Positions 2,967 to 62,657 of a DNA stretch of 64,000 nucleotides are shown here, piece after piece. Within the stretch, counting starts at the first letter, position 1, and the number at the start of each line of letters is the position of its first letter. The stretch is from contig NZ_FNVA01000007.1 of the NCBI RefSeq assembly GCF_900108185.1, positions 124,001 through 188,000 of the forward strand. The letters run 5' to 3'. The notes under the pieces are model-generated. The model saw nothing but the letters and a program-made list of their open reading frames with translations, was not told the origin of the DNA and did no database searches. The position numbers and the translations under genes were made by a program. This DNA comes from Bryocella elongata. GTDB taxonomy: Bacteria > Acidobacteriota > Terriglobia > Terriglobales > Acidobacteriaceae.

Positions 2967-3040
2967 GAGCGTATCGCAGCCGGATGAGAACTGGGAACGG
3001 CGTACGGCCGGCGTGCCGCATGGTGAAACCGTCTCATCGA

Positions 3041-3117
3041 GTTGCGAGTTGCGAGTTGCGAGTTGCGAGTTGCGAGTTGCGAGTTGCGAGTTGCGAGTTG
3101 CGAGTTGCGAGTTGCGA
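3041..3117. repeat. Perfect heptamer tandem array, 11 x GTTGCGA
   Basis: Eleven identical copies of GTTGCGA run without a single substitution between two minus-strand genes. A partial copy (CGA) precedes the first full one. The array belongs with the 7-nt-periodic spacers at 36883, 53248, 57284 and 62581. Perfect identity suggests recent expansion by slippage. Confidence 0.98.
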
Positions 3118-35342: not shown

Positions 35343-36874
35343 ACACGGCTCCCCGGCCACTTCGGGTCCTCATGATCGAGGACTACGAAGAGGACGCACT
35401 GCTGCTCCAGCGACACCTGGGGCGCAGCGGCTTTCGCGTGGACGCGCTGCGCATCGAGACTGCAGAGGCTCTGGGGCACGCGTTGTCCGGCGACCGGGAA
35501 TGGGACCTCATCATCGCCGACTACACGCTGCCGGGATTCGGCGCCCGCGAGGCGCTGGAGCTCATGCAGCAGCGCGGCATCGACGTGCCCTTCATCATCG
35601 TGTCGGGCACCATCGACGAGGTGTCGGCGGTGAACGCGATGCGCGCCGGGGCGCATGATTACGTCCTCAAGGGGCATCTCGAGCGGCTCATTCCGGCGAT
35701 CGAGCGCGAGCTGCACGATGCCGAAAAGCGCCGCGAACGTCTGCGTACCGAGCGAGAGCTGCAGCTTCTGCAGCAACGCTTCTCGGCGACGTTCAATCAG
35801 GCCGCCGTGGGCATGGCACACACGACCACGGACGGACGCTTTGTTCTGGTGAATCAGCGCCTCAGCGAGCTGCTGGGGGTGCCGGTCGATCGTATGCTGG
35901 CGCTCAATCTCAAGGACTTCATCCTGCCCAGCGAACGCGATGCCGACAAGGAGCTTTACGCGGAGCTTGTGGAGGGAAGGCGAACCGGCTACCGCTCTGA
36001 GCGGAACCTGATGCGCCACGATGGCTCGGTATTTCCGGCGCAGCTCACCGTCTCGCTTCTCCTGCACGGCAGCGTCGGGCACGATGTCACCGAGTCCAGC
36101 GTCCTTTGGGTCGTGGAAGATATCTCCGCCCGCAAGGCAGCGGAGCGCGAGACCTCCGAGCTGATGCAGCGCCTCATCAACAGCGAGCGGCTGGCGGCGG
36201 CGGGCCGCATGGCCAACACGCTGGCGCATGAGATCAACAATCCTCTCGAGGCGCTCACCAACATCTTCTATCTGCTCGACAAGGAATCGCTCACGCTGGC
36301 GGGCCAGGAGCTGATTGCCATCGCTGCGCGCGAACTCGACCGCGTCGGCCACATCACTCGCTCGACGCTGAGCTTCTACCGCAAGATGCCGGGCCGAACC
36401 CTCGACCTGCAGACCCTGCTCACGGAGGTCGTGCAGCTCTTCCAATCGAGGGCCACGCAACACCAGATCCACATGGATAGCTTCTACGGCCCGGGTATCG
36501 ACCAGACGGGCTACGATCCGGCGCTACGACAGGTCTTTGCCAACCTGGTCGGCAATGCGCTGGAAGCCATGGAGACGAGCGGCGGCCGCATCCGGATCCG
36601 TGCCCGCATCCGCGATGGCCACGCCGTTGTGACTGTGTCGGACACCGGCCACGGTATCGATGGAGCCAACTTGCAGACCGTCTTCGAGCCCTTCTTCACC
36701 ACCAAGGGGGAGCGGGGCACGGGACTCGGACTATGGGTCACGCGCGGCATCGTGGAAGAGCAGGGCGGAACGCTGCAGTTGCGTTCCGCGACGCGTGGCA
36801 AGTACCGCGGCACCATCGTCCGCATCACGCTACCGGCCGCGGGAGTCCGCGAGCCAGCTGTGCTGGTGAACTGA
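35324..36874 (+). CDS. REC-PAS sensor histidine kinase
   Basis: The 516-residue soluble protein has, in order, a receiver domain (Asp66 in LIIADYTLPGFGAREALEL), a linker helix, a PAS domain (about 150-265; FSATFNQAAVGMAHTTTDGR), and a kinase core with His302 in ANTLAHEINNPLEALT, then the ATP domain (FANLVGNALEAME, DTGHGIDGANLQ, GTGLGLWV). A receiver at the N-terminus makes it likely to take its input from the upstream kinase and regulator, a relay from membrane to cytoplasm. No DNA-binding output exists in the cluster. A heptad-repeat hairpin lies just after the stop. Confidence 0.93.
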   Translation: MSSGLLNTAPRPLRVLMIEDYEEDALLLQRHLGRSGFRVDALRIETAEALGHALSGDREWDLIIADYTLPGFGAREALELMQQRGIDVPFIIVSGTIDEVSAVNAMRAGAHDYVLKGHLERLIPAIERELHDAEKRRERLRTERELQLLQQRFSATFNQAAVGMAHTTTDGRFVLVNQRLSELLGVPVDRMLALNLKDFILPSERDADKELYAELVEGRRTGYRSERNLMRHDGSVFPAQLTVSLLLHGSVGHDVTESSVLWVVEDISARKAAERETSELMQRLINSERLAAAGRMANTLAHEINNPLEALTNIFYLLDKESLTLAGQELIAIAARELDRVGHITRSTLSFYRKMPGRTLDLQTLLTEVVQLFQSRATQHQIHMDSFYGPGIDQTGYDPALRQVFANLVGNALEAMETSGGRIRIRARIRDGHAVVTVSDTGHGIDGANLQTVFEPFFTTKGERGTGLGLWVTRGIVEEQGGTLQLRSATRGKYRGTIVRITLPAAGVREPAVLVN

Positions 36875-36882
36875 AAGAGAAC

Positions 36883-36959
36883 GTGAGTAGAGGACAGTGA
36901 GTAGTGAGTCGAACGCTACGCTCTGTTCTCTACTCGCTGTCCTCTGCCCACTGCTTAGC
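36883..36959. repeat. Heptad-periodic inverted repeat between convergent genes
   Basis: Eleven 7-nt units fill the gap. The left part is AG/GTG-rich (GTGAGTA, GAGGACA, GTGAGTA, GTGAGTC) and the right part is its CT-rich near-complement (GTTCTCT, ACTCGCT, GTCCTCT, GCCCACT). Arms 36883-36904 and 36930-36951 pair at 19 of 22 positions, so the RNA of either strand would fold. It may serve as terminator for both neighbours. A 19-mer here recurs at 57372-57390. Confidence 0.85.
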
Positions 36960-36960
36960 C

Positions 36961-38082
36961 TTACTTCGTCTTGCTGCCCGCTGAATTCGGCGCCGGCGGA
37001 GGATAGTTCGGCTTCCGCTTCGGAGCCTTTTCGATCGCGGGTGCTGGCTTGTCCGGGTGCGTCAGGTTCACCGTGCGGTGCTTGGCGACAAAGTCGGCAA
37101 TCGCAAACTTCAGCTTCTCGATGCCCTCGCCGCTGACGGCACTGATGAGGTAGAGCGGCAGCTTCTTGCGCTTGGCGAAGGTGGTCAGCTTCTTCAGCTT
37201 ATCGGGATTCGCTACGTCGGCCTTGGTGGCGACCAGTAGCGTGGGCTTCTTCGGCAGCTCGGGGTCGAAGCTCTTCAGCTCCGCCGTGATGACCTTGTAG
37301 TCCTCGGTGGGGTCCTCGCGGCCGCTGCCATCCGAGACATCGATGAGGTGCACCAGCACGCTGGTCCGCTCGATGTGCCGCAGGAACTGGATCCCGAGCC
37401 CGTGGCCTTCGCTTGCGCCCTCAATCAGCCCTGGAAGATCCGCGATGGTGAACGAGAGCGTGTGCGGGAAGTCGCCTACCTGCACGACGCCGAGGTTCGG
37501 CTCGAGCGTGGTGAACGGGTAGTTCGCGATCTTCGGCTTTGCGGCCGAGATGCGGGAGATGAGGGTCGATTTGCCCACGTTGGGGTAGCCGACTAGACCG
37601 GCGTCGGCAAGCAGGCGCAGCTCCAGGCGGAAGTTGCGTGCCTCGCCCGGGCGGCCCAGCTCGTGCTCGCGCGGCGCCTGGTGCGTTGACGTGGCAAAGT
37701 GCTGGTTGCCACGCCCACCGCGACCGCCCTTACAGATCACGATCTCTTCGTCGACCCGGGTAAAGTCGTGGATCAGCTCGCCCGTCTCGTCGTCGTACAG
37801 CACGGTACCGACGGGGACCTTCAATACTGTGTGCTCGCCCGAGGCGCCGGACATGTTGGAACCCAGGCCATGCTCGCCGCGCTCGGACTTATGCTCGGGG
37901 TTGAAACGGAAATGAATCAACGTGTTATGCGACAACGACGAGCGCATGACGATATCTCCGCCATGGCCGCCGTCGCCCCCGGAAGGGCCGCCTTTGGGCA
38001 CGAACTTTTCGCGGCGGAACGCCATGCAGCCATTGCCGCCATCGCCGGCCTTTACACGGATGCGTGCTTCATCAATAAACAT
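36961..38082 (-). CDS. obg: GTPase Obg/CgtA
   Basis: Obg is an essential GTPase involved in 50S ribosome assembly and stress control. The 373-residue protein opens with the Gly-rich Obg fold ([35 protein letters not shown]). The G domain follows with [12 protein letters not shown], the switch [29 protein letters not shown] and ATKADV. The C-terminal tail of about 35 residues is Lys/Pro-rich and unlike the variable ends of other Obg proteins. GAAGGAAC precedes the ATG. It is convergent with the kinase gene and divergent from the TonB receptor gene. Confidence 0.96.
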
Positions 38083-53241: not shown

Positions 53242-53247
53242 AAGAGC

Positions 53248-53275
53248 AGCTTCTAGCCGCTAGGAGCTAGGCTTT
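53248..53275. repeat. Short heptad-periodic spacer between convergent genes
   Basis: Four 7-nt units of the form AGnnnnT run in phase: AGCTTCT, AGCCGCT, AGGAGCT, AGGCTTT. CTAG recurs every 7 bp at three positions. CTTCTAG and CTAGAAG at the ends can pair, the second reaching into the patatin stop codon. It resembles the other heptad spacers. Confidence 0.65.
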
Positions 53276-56944: not shown

Positions 56945-57283
56945 CTAGCCCGGAGGCCAGTGCATCGGCCGGCCGCCCAGCAGGTGGACGTGCAGGTGTC
57001 CCACCGTCTGCCCGCCGTCCGCGCCCGTGTTGATCACCATGCGGTAGCCGTTGTCGAGCCCCTGCGCCTTCGCGACCTCGCCGGCCGCAGCCAGCAATTC
57101 TCCGTAGACGGCAGCGTCCTCCGCTGTGCCATGAGCATGGCTGGCCAGGTGCTTCTTTGGAATGACGAGCACGTGCACCGGCGCCTGCGGGCTGATGTCC
57201 GGAAACGCCAGCACGTGGTCGTTCTCATACAGCCGCGTCACGGGAATCGTGCCGGCAGCGATCTTGCAGAAGAGGCAATCCAT
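56945..57283 (-). CDS. HIT-family nucleotide hydrolase/transferase
   Basis: The 112-residue protein is a small HINT-like HIT-domain enzyme acting on nucleoside phosphoramidates or dinucleotides. It begins CLFCKIAAGTIPVTRLYEND, includes PQAPVHVLVIPKKHLAS, and ends with the catalytic histidine triad in VGHLHVHLLGG. Length is normal. The ATG at 57283 is followed upstream directly by the heptad spacer at 57284, which contains no good ribosome site, so translation may be inefficient or controlled in an unusual way. Confidence 0.93.
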   Translation of the reverse strand: MDCLFCKIAAGTIPVTRLYENDHVLAFPDISPQAPVHVLVIPKKHLASHAHGTAEDAAVYGELLAAAGEVAKAQGLDNGYRMVINTGADGGQTVGHLHVHLLGGRPMHWPPG

Positions 57284-57390
57284 AGGGAGAAGATACGAGA
57301 TTCGAGAGGCGAGAGGCGAGTGAGTGGAGGTCAGAGAGTAGACGGGAACTGCGGAGCAACTCTGCTCACTGCTCACTGTCCTCTACTCAC
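57284..57390. repeat. Spacer made entirely of heptad-periodic units
   Basis: Units of 7 nt fill the whole gap from the HIT start codon to the M48 stop. Counting from 57284 they read AGGGAGA, AGATACG, AGATTCG, AGAGGCG, AGAGGCG, AGTGAGT, GGAGGTC, AGAGAGT, AGACGGG, AACTGCG, GAGCAAC, TCTGCTC, ACTGCTC, ACTGTCC, TCTACTC. The first two thirds are AG-rich and the last third CT-rich. Arms 57320-57338 and 57372-57390 pair at 16 of 19 positions. The last unit contains the M48 stop codon. Confidence 0.85.
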
Positions 57391-58727
57391 TTCTTCTTGA
57401 AGTACTTCGGCTCCATCCCCCGCGCCCACGGATCGTAGGCCTTGCCGAACGCCGCGCGGTAGCCCGTAGGAGGATGGTCATAGCTCCACCACACGTACAG
57501 CGGATTTGGGTTGGGGTCCGAGTATGAGGTCTCGCCCAGCAGCTGGAAGCTGCCCTGCGCGGCGCCCTGCGGGTCGGCCACGATCCCATGCACCAGCTCC
57601 TGCCCGTAGATATCCGCGGCATGCTCGTGCTGCCGGATCATGTGGCTCTCCAGTGGCTCGGAGACGATCGTCAGCAGTGTTGCGATCAGCATGAAGACAG
57701 CAAACGCCCCCCAGTCGCTCATGGAGGCGATGCGCCACCGCGCCCCGTGCCGCTTCAGCAGCCACTGCGTTCCCACAAAGAGCGCCATCAGCAGCGCCAG
57801 CGATCCGGCCACGCTCCACCAGAAAGCCTGCTCGATGTGGCCCAGCGCATAGTGCCCGCTCTCGTGCCCGAAGATCACGAGGATCTCGTCCGGTGTGGCC
57901 TTCGCAATCGTGTTATCCCACACGACGACCCGCTTCGAGCTGCCGAAGCCCTCGACATCGGCGTTCAGGGTCGTCACCTTCTCGCTGGCCTTCTCGAGGA
58001 ACATCCGCTCGGGCGGGATATCCATGTGCCCCTTGGCGCAGAGCTCCTCGAGCTTCGCCACCAGCGCGGGATTGGTCTTCTGCAGCGGCTCGTAGTGGTT
58101 CATCACCTTGTTGGCATACGGCGTCCCATAAAACGCCGCTGCGATCAGCGGAATCGACAGTACCCAGCACACCAGCCAGCAGCTCCGGGGAAAGCGGCGG
58201 ACCAGGAAGAAGAGAAGCAAGAGGAGGAGTGCATAGATCGGATAGCTCAGCGTTAGCACCTTCGCCTGCAGGCCGAACCAGCTGCCCCAGCTCTGCACGG
58301 AGAGCCCGAAGTGCACCGCCTCATGATGCGAAAACACGCTCAGCGGAAGGTCGATCAACGTGATCAGAAGCATCCACGCGAAGGTGAAGAGAAATGCCTG
58401 CGCCCAACGATTGCGGAAGGCCACGGCGCGGTCGCGCACCCAGGCGATGACGCCCAGCTGCAGCAGCGCCCAGAGGCTCAGCAGGTCCCAGGCCTCGCGC
58501 ACAAAGTGCAGCGGCGTGAAGATCTCCGACAGCGTGCGTGCTTTGGCGAGGCTCGCCGGGGGCAGGGAGTAGTCGGGCAGATTGCTGTGCAGTGGCGTTG
58601 CGGCGATCTTCGCGCGCGCGTAGGCGTCCGCAACGCTTTCGGCCCGGGTTGGCGCGGCGTGGGCGAAGGATGCAAGGGACAGCAGTACGGTGAGCAGGCT
58701 GAGTGCCAGCAACGAGCGAAGGCGCAT
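57387..58727 (-). CDS. M48-family membrane metalloprotease (Ste24-like)
   Basis: The 446-residue protease has a signal-like first helix, several membrane helices (RNRWAQAFLFTFAWMLLITL, YPIYALLLLLLFFLV), and the zinc motif in IFGHESGHYALGH (His288, Glu289, His292), with the third ligand region later (EHAADIYGQELVHG). The plan and the GYGSSKR-like segment EGFGSSKRVVVWDNT match CAAX protease 1/Ste24 relatives, which cleave membrane or prenylated proteins. The ATG at 58727 gives the best N-terminus. It is divergent from the exported TldD-like gene. Its stop lies inside the heptad spacer. Confidence 0.92.
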   Translation of the reverse strand: MRLRSLLALSLLTVLLSLASFAHAAPTRAESVADAYARAKIAATPLHSNLPDYSLPPASLAKARTLSEIFTPLHFVREAWDLLSLWALLQLGVIAWVRDRAVAFRNRWAQAFLFTFAWMLLITLIDLPLSVFSHHEAVHFGLSVQSWGSWFGLQAKVLTLSYPIYALLLLLLFFLVRRFPRSCWLVCWVLSIPLIAAAFYGTPYANKVMNHYEPLQKTNPALVAKLEELCAKGHMDIPPERMFLEKASEKVTTLNADVEGFGSSKRVVVWDNTIAKATPDEILVIFGHESGHYALGHIEQAFWWSVAGSLALLMALFVGTQWLLKRHGARWRIASMSDWGAFAVFMLIATLLTIVSEPLESHMIRQHEHAADIYGQELVHGIVADPQGAAQGSFQLLGETSYSDPNPNPLYVWWSYDHPPTGYRAAFGKAYDPWARGMEPKYFKKK

Positions 58728-60867: not shown

Positions 60868-62583
60868 ATGAAGTTTGCTAGCTCGCTTGCCGCAACGTTG
60901 ATCGTCTTTGGAGCTTACGGAGCCGTTGCACAGAAGAAGGCGGCCACGCCATTTCAGTGCGATGACTGCGATGGGGCGCAGGTCGCCCATGTTCTCAAAG
61001 GGCCGCAAATCAAGCCGCTCACCGATCCCATCCTGGCCGCCATGCAGGACGAGCTGGAGCGGGAGAAGACCGAACTCGTGCTCCCTGGCATGCAGAGGCC
61101 CTACTTCATCGCCTATCGTCTCGAAGACATCCAGAGCTACGACGCCACCGCGAGCTATGGAGCGCTTACCGGAGAGAACGAACGTCGGCAGCGCGTTGTG
61201 CGTGTCGAGCTGCGCATTGGCGACTACGTCTCCGATTCCAGCTCCGCCCGTGGCGATGGCACGCTCGAGCTGGCTCCTGGCGACGATGATGCCGCAGCGC
61301 TCAAGTTCGCGCTTTGGACTGCAACCGACGATGCCTACAAGGCCGCGCTGCGTGCCTATGCGGCCAAGCAGGCCGCGCTGAAGAACTTCCAGACCCCACC
61401 CACAGCCAACGACTTCACGCCCGCCAAACCCATCACGCACATCGAGCCGCTGCACACGCTCGTGCTCGATCGCGCCGAGTGGAAGAAGCGCATCATCGAG
61501 GCCAGCGGCTTGTACGCGACGGCGCCCGAGGTGAAGAGCTTCGCCGATCAGGTCCAGTATTCCAACGCCAACGTGCACGCCATCGTCGTGAACCGCTATA
61601 CGGTGGACACCGATGGCGCCGCGATGCGCACCGGCTACTCCAGCTACTCCGACCAGATCGCCGTCGGTGGCCAGGCTCCTGACGGCATGGAGCTGGGCCG
61701 AGCCAATGGCTCCAGCGCGGCGACTGCCTCAGGCCTCGAGAGCGCCGCCTCGCTGCACAAGCGCGCCATTGACAACCTCAGGAGCTTCAATGAGCTTCGT
61801 CTCGCGCCGGTCGTCGACTCCGAGGATTATCACGGCCCTGTGCTCTTCTCCGGGGATGCCGCTGCCGATGTCTTCAACCGCCTCTTCATCCCCAACGTCG
61901 AGGCCGATCGCCCCGATATGGGCACTACCGCCCGCACGCAGGGTGCGTACCAGTCGAGCTGGAAGAGCCCCGTGCTGCCAACCTTCCTCAGCGTCGTCGA
62001 CGACCCCACGATGAAGACCTTCGAAGGCAAGACCCTCGTCGGCAGCTATGAGGTCGATGACGAAGGCCAGCCTGTCGCTCCCGTGGACGTCGTCGAGCAT
62101 GGCAAGCTCATCAACTACCTCGTCGGCCGCGAGCCGGTGAAGGACTTCCCGGTCTCCAACGGTCACGGCCGCGCAGCGCTGGGACAGGGGGCCCACTCCA
62201 AGGCCGGCATCATCGTCGTGAAGAGCGCGCAGCCGCTCACCGCGGAGCAGATGCACGCGAAGCTGCTCGCACTCGCGAAGGACCAGCAGCGTGATGTGTA
62301 CGAGGTCGAGACGCTGGTGGGCGACCTGGTCCCCCGGTTGCTCTATCGTGTCTCTCCCAGCGGCAAACGCACGCTGGTGCGCGGGGCAGTCTTTGACGAG
62401 CTCGACCAGCGCGCCCTGCGCTCCGAGGTCATCGCCGCGGGCGGAAAGCCTTACGTCGCGCAGACCGCAACCCCCGTGCCGGAGACGACAATCGTGCCCG
62501 AGCTGCTCTTCGCAGATATCGCGGTAAAGCGCGCCACGCAGGAGCAGGCGAAGCTGCCGTATTATGCTCCGCCGGGGAATTGA
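60868..62583 (+). CDS. Exported TldE/PmbA-like partner lacking the zinc motif
   Basis: The 571-residue protein is homologous to the preceding TldD-like protein (shared LPTFLSVVDDPTM, GSYEVDDEGQPVAPVDVVEH, FPVSNGHGRAALGQG) but where the zinc motif should stand it has GDAAADVFNRLFIPNVEADR, so it cannot bind catalytic zinc. This mirrors TldE in the TldD/TldE dimer. It too has a signal peptide (ASSLAATLIVFGAYGAVAQ), so the pair probably works in the periplasm. A short Cys motif (FQCDDCDGA) follows the signal. Its end touches the heptad spacer at 62581. Confidence 0.86.
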   Translation: MKFASSLAATLIVFGAYGAVAQKKAATPFQCDDCDGAQVAHVLKGPQIKPLTDPILAAMQDELEREKTELVLPGMQRPYFIAYRLEDIQSYDATASYGALTGENERRQRVVRVELRIGDYVSDSSSARGDGTLELAPGDDDAAALKFALWTATDDAYKAALRAYAAKQAALKNFQTPPTANDFTPAKPITHIEPLHTLVLDRAEWKKRIIEASGLYATAPEVKSFADQVQYSNANVHAIVVNRYTVDTDGAAMRTGYSSYSDQIAVGGQAPDGMELGRANGSSAATASGLESAASLHKRAIDNLRSFNELRLAPVVDSEDYHGPVLFSGDAAADVFNRLFIPNVEADRPDMGTTARTQGAYQSSWKSPVLPTFLSVVDDPTMKTFEGKTLVGSYEVDDEGQPVAPVDVVEHGKLINYLVGREPVKDFPVSNGHGRAALGQGAHSKAGIIVVKSAQPLTAEQMHAKLLALAKDQQRDVYEVETLVGDLVPRLLYRVSPSGKRTLVRGAVFDELDQRALRSEVIAAGGKPYVAQTATPVPETTIVPELLFADIAVKRATQEQAKLPYYAPPGN

Positions 62584-62657
62584 GTGAGTGTTGTTCTACG
62601 TTGTGAGTGGTACGTTCTACGTGTTCGTACAACGTAGAACGCACAACATACAACGGA
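62581..62657. repeat. Heptad-periodic hairpin spacer between convergent genes
   Basis: Eleven 7-nt units in phase: TGAGTGA, GTGTTGT, TCTACGT, TGTGAGT, GGTACGT, TCTACGT, GTTCGTA, CAACGTA, GAACGCA, CAACATA, CAACGGA. The left half has the core TACGT and the right half its complement. GTTCTACGTTGT (62593-62604) and ACAACGTAGAAC (62629-62640) pair perfectly over 12 bp. It could end both convergent transcripts. The first unit contains the stop of the TldE-like gene. Confidence 0.85.

What the first reader, a model, noticed from the sequence alone, without database searches (positions are those of the whole stretch)
57284..57390. A family of 7-nt-periodic spacers at gene ends
The whole spacer from the HIT start codon to the M48 stop can be written as in-phase heptads, most starting AG, with a switch from AG-rich to CT-rich units. 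Four other gaps (3041-3117, 36883-36959, 53248-53275, 62581-62657) show the same 7-nt period with other unit sequences. Three lie between convergent genes and several include a stop codon. The unit sequence differs by locus while the period is kept, as if a copying process with a 7-nt step builds and diverges the arrays. I know of short heptamer repeats in cyanobacteria, but no described family that matches this.
Basis: partly seen in the sequence, partly recalled or inferred. Interest (0 to 1): 0.72.

Follow-up and report, generated by a model that had tools for sequence, protein, structure and literature searches.

The report
Gene-end heptad repeats and hairpins
This soil bacterium carries, in the short gaps between many of its genes, small tandem repeats built from 7-letter (sometimes 8-letter) words, often in mirror-image pairs; repeats of this kind are known in other bacteria, but how they spread and what they do is still unknown.

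Summary
In a 1.64 Mb sample (29% of the genome), noncoding DNA holds 89 strong lag-7 segments against 3-7 at lags 4-6 and 9-13; lag 8 gives 25. Of the five named loci, four are the window's only lag-7 peaks over my threshold; 53248-53275 did not pass. The middle of the flagged spacer is not lag-7 periodic.

The AG-to-CT switch is often an inverted repeat. Units are not locus-private: identical units recur at distant loci far above chance. One family is octameric and matched none of 60 relatives. The G/purine-rich strand tends to read from the gene boundary into the gap.

It is a variant of a known kind: heptanucleotide SSRs, Xanthomonas GGGAATC repeats (same positional rule) and paired 7/8-nt tandem sites of Geobacter metallireducens.

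Best explanation: lineage-specific units spread between gene boundaries, grow and diverge by slippage and template switching, and are tolerated or selected as long gene-end stem-loops. They are not classical terminators (mostly long loops, few T after the stem). Dispersal and function are inferred. At the flagged locus the sense-strand stem is no better than shuffled sequence (z -0.6 to -0.7).

The parts
57284..57322 (+). AG-rich heptad arm (AGGGAGA AGATACG AGATTCG AGAGGCG AGAGGCG AGTG...), starting at the base next to the HIT start codon
   Evidence: lag-7 segment score 18.4 (one search carries the merged lag-7/lag-14 segment to 57344); sequence
57323..57359 (.). middle of the gap, no lag-7 segment (mostly the loop of the inverted repeat)
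   Evidence: between the two lag-7 segments
57360..57389 (-). AG-rich arm on the - strand (TGAGTAG AGGACAG TGAGCAG TGAGCAG); first unit contains the M48 stop codon 57387-57389
   Evidence: lag-7 score 11.2; listed as a periodic hairpin arm
56945..57283 (-). HIT-domain protein gene, downstream neighbour
   Evidence: Pfam PF01230 E 6.8e-25
57387..58727 (-). M48 peptidase gene, upstream neighbour
   Evidence: Pfam PF01435 E 3.4e-16, PF16491 E 1.3e-13
36883..36959 (.). two-armed GTGAGTA/GAGGACA heptad hairpin filling a convergent gap
   Evidence: 36873-36965 folds at z -4.94 (+) and -5.08 (-) against dinucleotide shuffles
62593..62654 (.). two-armed heptad hairpin (GTTCTAC, GTTGTGA and related units) in a convergent gap
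   Evidence: 62575-62665 fold z -1.94 (+) and -4.22 (-)
3038..3117 (+). one-armed perfect array, 11.4 copies of CGAGTTG, tandem gap
   Evidence: TRF 100% matches, score 160
53242..53275 (.). 34-nt convergent gap with CTAGNNN units in a small hairpin; weak member
   Evidence: 53235-53285 fold z -1.55; below threshold

Best explanation
The spacers belong to a population of short tandem arrays in an Acidobacteriaceae genome. Many arrays come from a handful of unit families, mostly 7 nt, one 8 nt. Step 1 (inferred): a unit arises in a lineage and is spread to many gene boundaries without flanking DNA. Step 2 (inferred, in line with the array forms): arrays lengthen, shorten and diverge by unit-length slippage. 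Step 3 (inferred): template switching or insertion of a second copy in inverted orientation makes two-armed arrays. Step 4 (inferred): two-armed arrays are kept mostly where transcripts end, where they can form long stem-loops in the 3' part of the mRNA. Shown here: the arrays, the recurrent units, the inverted arms, the concentration of two-armed arrays at gene ends, the inward strand bias and the lineage-specific octamer. A benefit to the cell from the stem-loop is not shown.
For: Excess at lag 7 and 8. Identical units at distant loci, 119 pairs against 9.35 by chance. The CAGCNGAA octamer pattern has 76 hits in this genome and 0 in 60 relatives. For its 41 clusters in the sample (many of them single 12-nt matches), 80-nt flanks gave 19 blastn matches; after masking the repeat itself, none is left between loci more than 1 kb apart. 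CGAGNTN x4 occurs in 9 of 61 genomes. Two-armed arrays: convergent 14 of 181, tandem 17 of 625, divergent 1 of 222 gaps; one-armed 14, 52 and 14. Arm-to-arm identity 0.86 against 0.71 with unit order permuted; natural order single best in 15 of 32 against 8.1 expected. 5' arm G>C in 25, C>G in 4, tie in 3 of 32, against 31 and 32 of 78 other hairpins. At the orthologous M48-HIT gap, 6 of 17 genomes carry clear AG/CT arrays with different units, 1 is partial and 10 have none.
Against: At the flagged locus the sense-strand fold is ordinary (z -0.7, -0.6). Periodic hairpins have fewer T after the stem (mean 1.9 in 8 nt, against 2.8 for other hairpins) and loops of 4-79 nt. They do not replace compact hairpins in convergent gaps: 8 of 30 array gaps and 50 of 148 others have one, p 0.53. 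The inward strand bias also holds at gene starts, which a pure 3'-end role would not predict. One-armed arrays outnumber two-armed (80 to 32), so hairpins are not obligatory, and the contrast of two-armed with one-armed arrays between gene-end and divergent gaps has p 0.06. An array-free relative, G005, also folds well at the M48-HIT gap (z -3.6). No RNA data.
Confidence: 0.55

Rival explanations
1. Pure mutational by-product: polymerase slippage with a preferred 7-nt step makes heptad arrays wherever selection does not remove them; positions and hairpins need no function.
For: Published proposal for heptanucleotide SSRs (Mrazek 2007 as described in PMC4679880). Arrays are rare in ORFs called coding (35, against 89 in noncoding DNA at lag 7, although coding DNA is 6.5 times larger). 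One-armed arrays are common.
Against: Slippage alone should give locus-private units, but units recur at distant loci. One 8-nt unit expanded in this genome only. Mismatches fall at fixed unit positions within some families (AGGG family: 0.09-0.18 in the core, 0.38-0.56 outside; partly circular, because phase was set with the core). The strand bias.
Confidence: 0.25
2. Binding-site arrays for a DNA- or RNA-binding protein that contacts one unit per 7-8 nt, like the paired sites proposed to bind IHF/HU-type regulators in Geobacter metallireducens.
For: Similar anatomy in PMC2700814. Steadier core and more variable positions in some unit families. PMC4679880 notes that B. subtilis CspB can bind heptamer direct repeats, one protein per heptamer.
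Against: At least six different cores in one genome would need as many specificities. Units mostly 7 nt in one species are 8 nt at the same gap in another. I see no shared theme among the neighbouring genes examined (ten proteins).
Confidence: 0.15
3. Classical intrinsic terminators that happen to have repetitive stems.
For: Bias of two-armed arrays to convergent gaps and strong folds on both strands at 36873-36965.
Against: Mostly long loops and few T after the 3' arm. A separate set of compact hairpins, mostly with 3-6 nt loops, exists in the same genome. No exclusivity between the two.
Confidence: 0.05

Closest known systems
Heptanucleotide long simple sequence repeats of prokaryotes (Mrazek and colleagues 2007; not seen itself, only as described in PMC4679880, section 3 read)
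   Same: 7-nt tandem units as the dominant class; slippage with a 7-nt polymerase contact already proposed
   Different: Here several unit families in one genome, one of them 8 nt, often imperfect and often in inverted pairs at gene boundaries
GGGAATC repeats of Xanthomonas and GGGGA(C/T)T repeats of Nostoc (PMC4692102: sections 10 and 15 read, passages elsewhere)
   Different: One G-quadruplex unit type there; here the family patterns CGAG, AGTG, AGCT and CGTT and the octamer CAGCNGAA have no run of three G, so a quadruplex cannot be the common property (AGGG and TGTTGGG units do have one)
Multicopy tandem 7/8-nt elements of Geobacter metallireducens, classes 1-3 and H4 (PMC2700814: passages and supplement legends seen, alignments not held)
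   Same: Several families of 7- and 8-nt tandem repeats, classes 1-3 mostly in pairs on opposite strands at variable distance and described as unique to that genome
   Different: Units differ (GTTGCTYN, TCTCCGTS[Y], MTYCTGA, GGACCGG); three to five repeats per site there, about 2 to over 20 here; read there as regulator sites
TAACTGA repeats of Beggiatoaceae (PMC4679880, section 3 read, passages elsewhere)
   Same: Heptad direct repeats in gaps, patchy distribution
   Different: Single unit, mostly upstream of start codons, one inverted case among 170 sets

Membership tests
Intergenic heptanucleotide SSR (LSSR class) | tandem unit of 7 nt above chance, mainly outside genes | tested here: met
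Intergenic heptanucleotide SSR (LSSR class) | copy number changes by whole units between strains | not testable with these tools
   no closely related strain was found; same-genus relatives share 47-55% protein identity at M48
Xanthomonas-type GGGAATC repeats | G-rich strand sense after stops, antisense before starts | tested here: met
   G>C inward in 56, outward in 27 of 86 lag-7 arrays (p 0.002) and 18 against 6 of 24 lag-8 arrays; a bias, not a strict rule
Xanthomonas-type GGGAATC repeats | quadruplex-forming G-tracts in the unit | tested here: inconclusive
   the family patterns of 34 of 68 assigned arrays (CGAG, AGTG, AGCT, CGTT) have no run of three G; AGGG (22) and many TGTT (12) units do; not examined array by array, no biophysics
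Geobacter metallireducens paired tandem sites | 7/8-nt tandem arrays in pairs on opposite strands, lineage-specific | tested here: met
   32 two-armed periodic gaps; octamer pattern found in this genome alone among 61
Geobacter metallireducens paired tandem sites | same unit sequences | not tested
   the Geobacter alignments were not held; consensus units named differ by eye
Intrinsic terminator | compact GC-rich hairpin followed by a T-tract | tested here: not met
   loops 4-79 nt (4 nt in three) and mean 1.9 T in the next 8 nt for 32 periodic hairpins
REP/RAYT palindromes | conserved palindrome copies mobilised by a Y1 transposase in the genome | tested here: not met
   for the octamer family, no flank match between loci once the repeat is masked; Y1_Tnp present in G000 (3 matches) but without a match in G037, which has arrays
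Templated addition by a reverse transcriptase | a reverse transcriptase gene in the genome | tested here: not met
   no RVT_1 (PF00078) match at E 0.001 or better in G000; other RT families not searched
Cyanobacterial STRR | STRR heptamer unit sequences | not tested
   unit letters are recalled only; not searched

The most novel reading that the evidence does not exclude
A trans-acting dispersal process, not an insertion element with flanks, copies short tandem units of 7-8 nt to gene boundaries across a genome and sets their strand, so that whole lineages acquire and replace their own 'punctuation' of gene ends; Xanthomonas, Geobacter and this Acidobacteriaceae lineage would be independent cases of one mechanism.
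Probability: 0.2. Interest if true: 0.85.

Novelty: new variant of a known kind. Interest (0 to 1): 0.5.

Why it matters
Heptad repeats have mostly been described one unit at a time in unrelated bacteria. Here many units share one size range, one kind of location and one strand bias in a single genome, and the same bias was reported for Xanthomonas. That points to a common mechanism rather than a function of any one sequence. The octamer found in one genome of 61, with no shared flanks detected, makes the open question 'how do short tandem units spread in bacterial genomes' directly testable.

Tried and rejected
Fixed 7-nt enzyme step: weakened by the 8-nt family and by 8-nt and mostly 7-nt units at the same gap in G007 and G015.

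All-frame stop-codon cassette (7 and 8 are not multiples of 3): considered by eye only and dropped, because units such as CGAGTTG hold no stop on either strand; not computed.

RAYT/Y1 transposase as the agent: Y1_Tnp matched in 52 of 61 genomes, not in G037, which has arrays, while G002 has six matches and one lag-7 segment in 200 kb. Reverse transcriptase: no RVT_1 match in the own genome.

Replacement of classical terminators: not significant.

GAGTAGT pattern as a presence/absence mark: it matched 26 of 61 genomes at up to two mismatches, but the reversed control matched 27 of 61 (my count's table), so only high counts mean anything: eight genomes (G000, G007, G015, G016, G017, G019, G026, G030) have 11-56 hits and more than their control (0-8).

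Single-linkage clustering of units did not separate families (136 of 139 in one component); families were then taken from 4-mer cores, leaving 56 of 124 arrays unassigned. 27 of the 139 arrays lie in ORFs called coding.

I infer family level only.

Limits of the counts: the gene caller is my own dicodon model and extends some starts into arrays (it put HIT's start at 57376). Gaps with under 20 nt or a stretch over 800 nt were dropped, and gaps with a stretch under 30 nt. Among the 32 periodic hairpins a few (e.g. C6 371907, C15 215180) look like ordinary hairpins. The stem search favours natural unit order, so the test is biased upward. The two arms of a gap are not independent, and the core motifs were chosen after seeing the families.

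Full report
THE OBSERVATION. The flagged gap (57284-57386) lies between the start of a HIT-domain gene and the stop of an M48 peptidase gene, both on the minus strand. The fifth, 53248-53275, is a short CTAGNNN hairpin that did not pass. At the flagged gap two stretches are lag-7 periodic, about 57284-57322 and 57360-57384, merging lag-7 and lag-14 segments, carries the first to 57344. The M48 stop codon is part of the first unit.

GENOME-WIDE. With an own gene caller (1,299 genes), noncoding DNA (217,906 nt) held 89 lag-7 segments at score 14 or more. Lags 4, 5, 6, 9, 10, 11, 12 and 13 gave 3, 3, 7, 7, 4, 4, 7 and 3; lag 8 gave 25, lag 14 gave 59 and lag 16 gave 19. ORFs called coding held 35 lag-7 segments in 1,424,649 nt. 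In the first 0.44 Mb, gaps held 18 lag-7 segments against 0.67 in dinucleotide shuffles. An independent count of 4-mers repeated three times at fixed spacing gave 152 strand-counted gap segments at spacing 7, 46 at 8, 92 at 14 and 8-28 at 4-6 and 9-13. By plain extrapolation the genome has about 300 such arrays.

UNIT FAMILIES. The commonest spacing-7 cores are AGGG, CGAG, AGCT, TGTT, AGTG/TGAG, CGTT/AACG and CCAG; the commonest spacing-8 cores are all pieces of one unit, CAGCRGAA. Among 139 arrays at 109 loci more than 1 kb apart, 119 pairs at different loci have identical consensus units, against 9.35 on average and 19 at most in 100 composition shuffles; twelve units recur at three to eight loci (first count). 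Within some families certain unit positions are steady and others vary (68 arrays assigned, 56 not). The phase was set with the core, which inflates this, and the CGAG family shows little contrast.

LINEAGE DISTRIBUTION. A GAGTAGT-type 17-mer at up to two mismatches matched 26 of 61 genomes, but its reversed control matched 27; the sturdy result is that eight genomes, the own one among them, have 11-56 hits and more than their control of 0-8 (my count). CGAGNTN x4 matched 9 of 61, its control 1. GAGTGAY arrays are mostly in two class-level relatives, G056 and G059 (43 of 47 hits). The octamer CAGCNGAACAGCNGAACAG has 76 hits in the window's genome and none in the other 60; the control has none anywhere. 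Samples of relatives vary widely in lag-7 noncoding segments: G007 19, G016 5, G002 1, G006 0 in 200 kb each, and G037, in another family of the same order, 5 in 80 kb with other units. The best named hits of a window protein are titled Acidobacteriaceae or Granulicella at 69-73% identity, with one at 73% titled Verrucomicrobia; the family-level name is my inference from that.

HAIRPINS. In 1,012 gaps, 79 have an inverted repeat of score 14 or more, against 0 in mononucleotide-shuffled gaps. Arms of the 107 with score 13 or more match at lag 7 in 0.40-0.42 and at lag 14 in 0.43-0.44 of positions, against about 0.29-0.30 shuffled. I selected 32 gaps with periodic arms, 27 at 7 nt and 5 at 8 nt. 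Their arms agree at 0.86, or 0.71 when units are permuted; natural order is the single best in 15 of 32 against 8.1 expected, a test biased upward by the stem search. The 5' arm has more G than C in 25, fewer in 4, tie in 3; other hairpins show 31 and 32 of 78. Two-armed gaps are 14 of 181 convergent, 17 of 625 tandem and 1 of 222 divergent; one-armed 14, 52 and 14. The contrast of gene-end gaps against divergent gaps for two-armed against one-armed arrays has p 0.06, so the trend is suggestive in this sample. Loops are mostly long (4-79 nt) and T is scarce after the stem. Compact hairpins are not significantly rarer in array gaps (8 of 30 against 50 of 148, p 0.53).

STRAND BIAS. For arrays within 40 nt of a gene boundary, reading from the nearer boundary into the gap, G exceeds C in 56 and C exceeds G in 27 of 86 lag-7 arrays (p 0.002), and 18 against 6 of 24 lag-8 arrays. 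By family cores, chosen after seeing the families, 54 point inward and 23 outward, and 15 against 1. Counted by motif, the octamer is inward at 17, outward at 2 and ambiguous at 2 of 21 clusters. The direction is the same at stops and at starts. PMC4692102 reports the same rule for G-rich heptads (abstract passage). Paired arms are not independent in this count.

THE SAME GAP IN RELATIVES. HIT follows M48 directly in 17 of 19 genomes (own plus 18). Six (own, G015, G007, G010, G018, G014) have AG-rich arrays at the stop codon and CT-rich sequence before the HIT start, with different units; G016 is partial; ten have no array. Fold z-scores against mononucleotide shuffles are -6.0, -7.9, -8.0, -2.6 and -4.5 in G015, G007, G010, G018 and G014, but only -0.6 in the own genome, and the array-free G005 has -3.6. 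In G007 and G015 the CT arm is nearly identical by eye, while the AG arm is 8-nt periodic in one and mostly 7-nt in the other. The CT arm of these two includes TTGACC and TACTCT; TTGACC followed by a similar box (TACTGT, TACCCT) also stands before HIT in G002 and G013, which have no array, so it may be the HIT promoter (sequences; my reading by eye; the own genome has CTGACC). For the gap at 36875-36960 the array was found only in the own genome among 12 loci, whose downstream neighbour may differ.

DISPERSAL. The 41 octamer clusters in the sample (many single 12-nt matches) gave 19 flank matches at E 1e-4 in 80-nt flanks. After masking the repeat, one is left, within one locus, and none between loci more than 1 kb apart. 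So no carrier element was seen. A Y1 transposase is not required (no match in G037) and no RVT_1 reverse transcriptase was found in the genome.

RELATION TO PRINT. Heptads as the dominant long SSR class and a 7-nt slippage proposal are in print (Mrazek 2007, known to me here through PMC4679880 section 3). Xanthomonas and Nostoc heptads: PMC4692102 (sections 10 and 15 and passages). Geobacter metallireducens paired 7/8-nt sites: PMC2700814 passages and supplement legends. PMC4060949 (passages) surveys SSRs and inverted repeats; its one main-text mention of Acidobacteria is a table key. PMC3174227 (passages) counts short repeats in Solibacter without naming heptads in the passages seen. Searches holding all of heptanucleotide, tandem repeat, intergenic and Acidobacteria, or heptameric, Acidobacteria, repeats and intergenic, gave no paper; Granulicella with tandem repeats gave two, seen as listings, one of them PMC3174227. 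I therefore call it a new variant of a known kind.

VERDICT. Real, genome-wide and lineage-variable; ordinary in kind, unusual in the number of units, the two-armed form and the shared strand bias. The dispersal step and any function are inference.

Noticed in passing
own genome C14 359694-359801, C15 204265-204414, C7 447323-447464: Three gap hairpins share a CTGTAGAG-type stem; possibly a dispersed REP-like palindrome.
   Followed up: no
own genome C4 261662-261691 and C6 485259-485279: Homopolymer C tracts of 30 and 21 bases in gaps; possible phase-variable tracts or assembly artefacts. They also count among the lag-7 segments.
   Followed up: no
G056 and G059 (class-level relatives): The reversed control pattern turned out to be another abundant heptad family, GAGTGAY, in these genomes.
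   Followed up: partly
G055:C4:78885-78993, G055:C7:95395-95447 and 105880-105974: Long perfect CGAGTTT arrays in a class-level relative.
   Followed up: no
window 57284-57386 and L090, L096, L091, L092, L100: In relatives the CT-rich sequence before HIT overlaps what looks like a TTGACC...TAC(T/C)(C/G)T promoter; the array may have been seeded by promoter sequence.
   Followed up: partly
G037:C14:100001-180000 (L189-L192): Heptads AGAACTG, AACTGAA and TGATCGC in a relative of another family; AACTGAA resembles the TAACTGA repeats of Beggiatoaceae.
   Followed up: no
own genome C4:148151-148239 and others called coding: 35 lag-7 segments fall in ORFs called coding; some may be wrong gene calls, some may be arrays inside real genes.
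   Followed up: no
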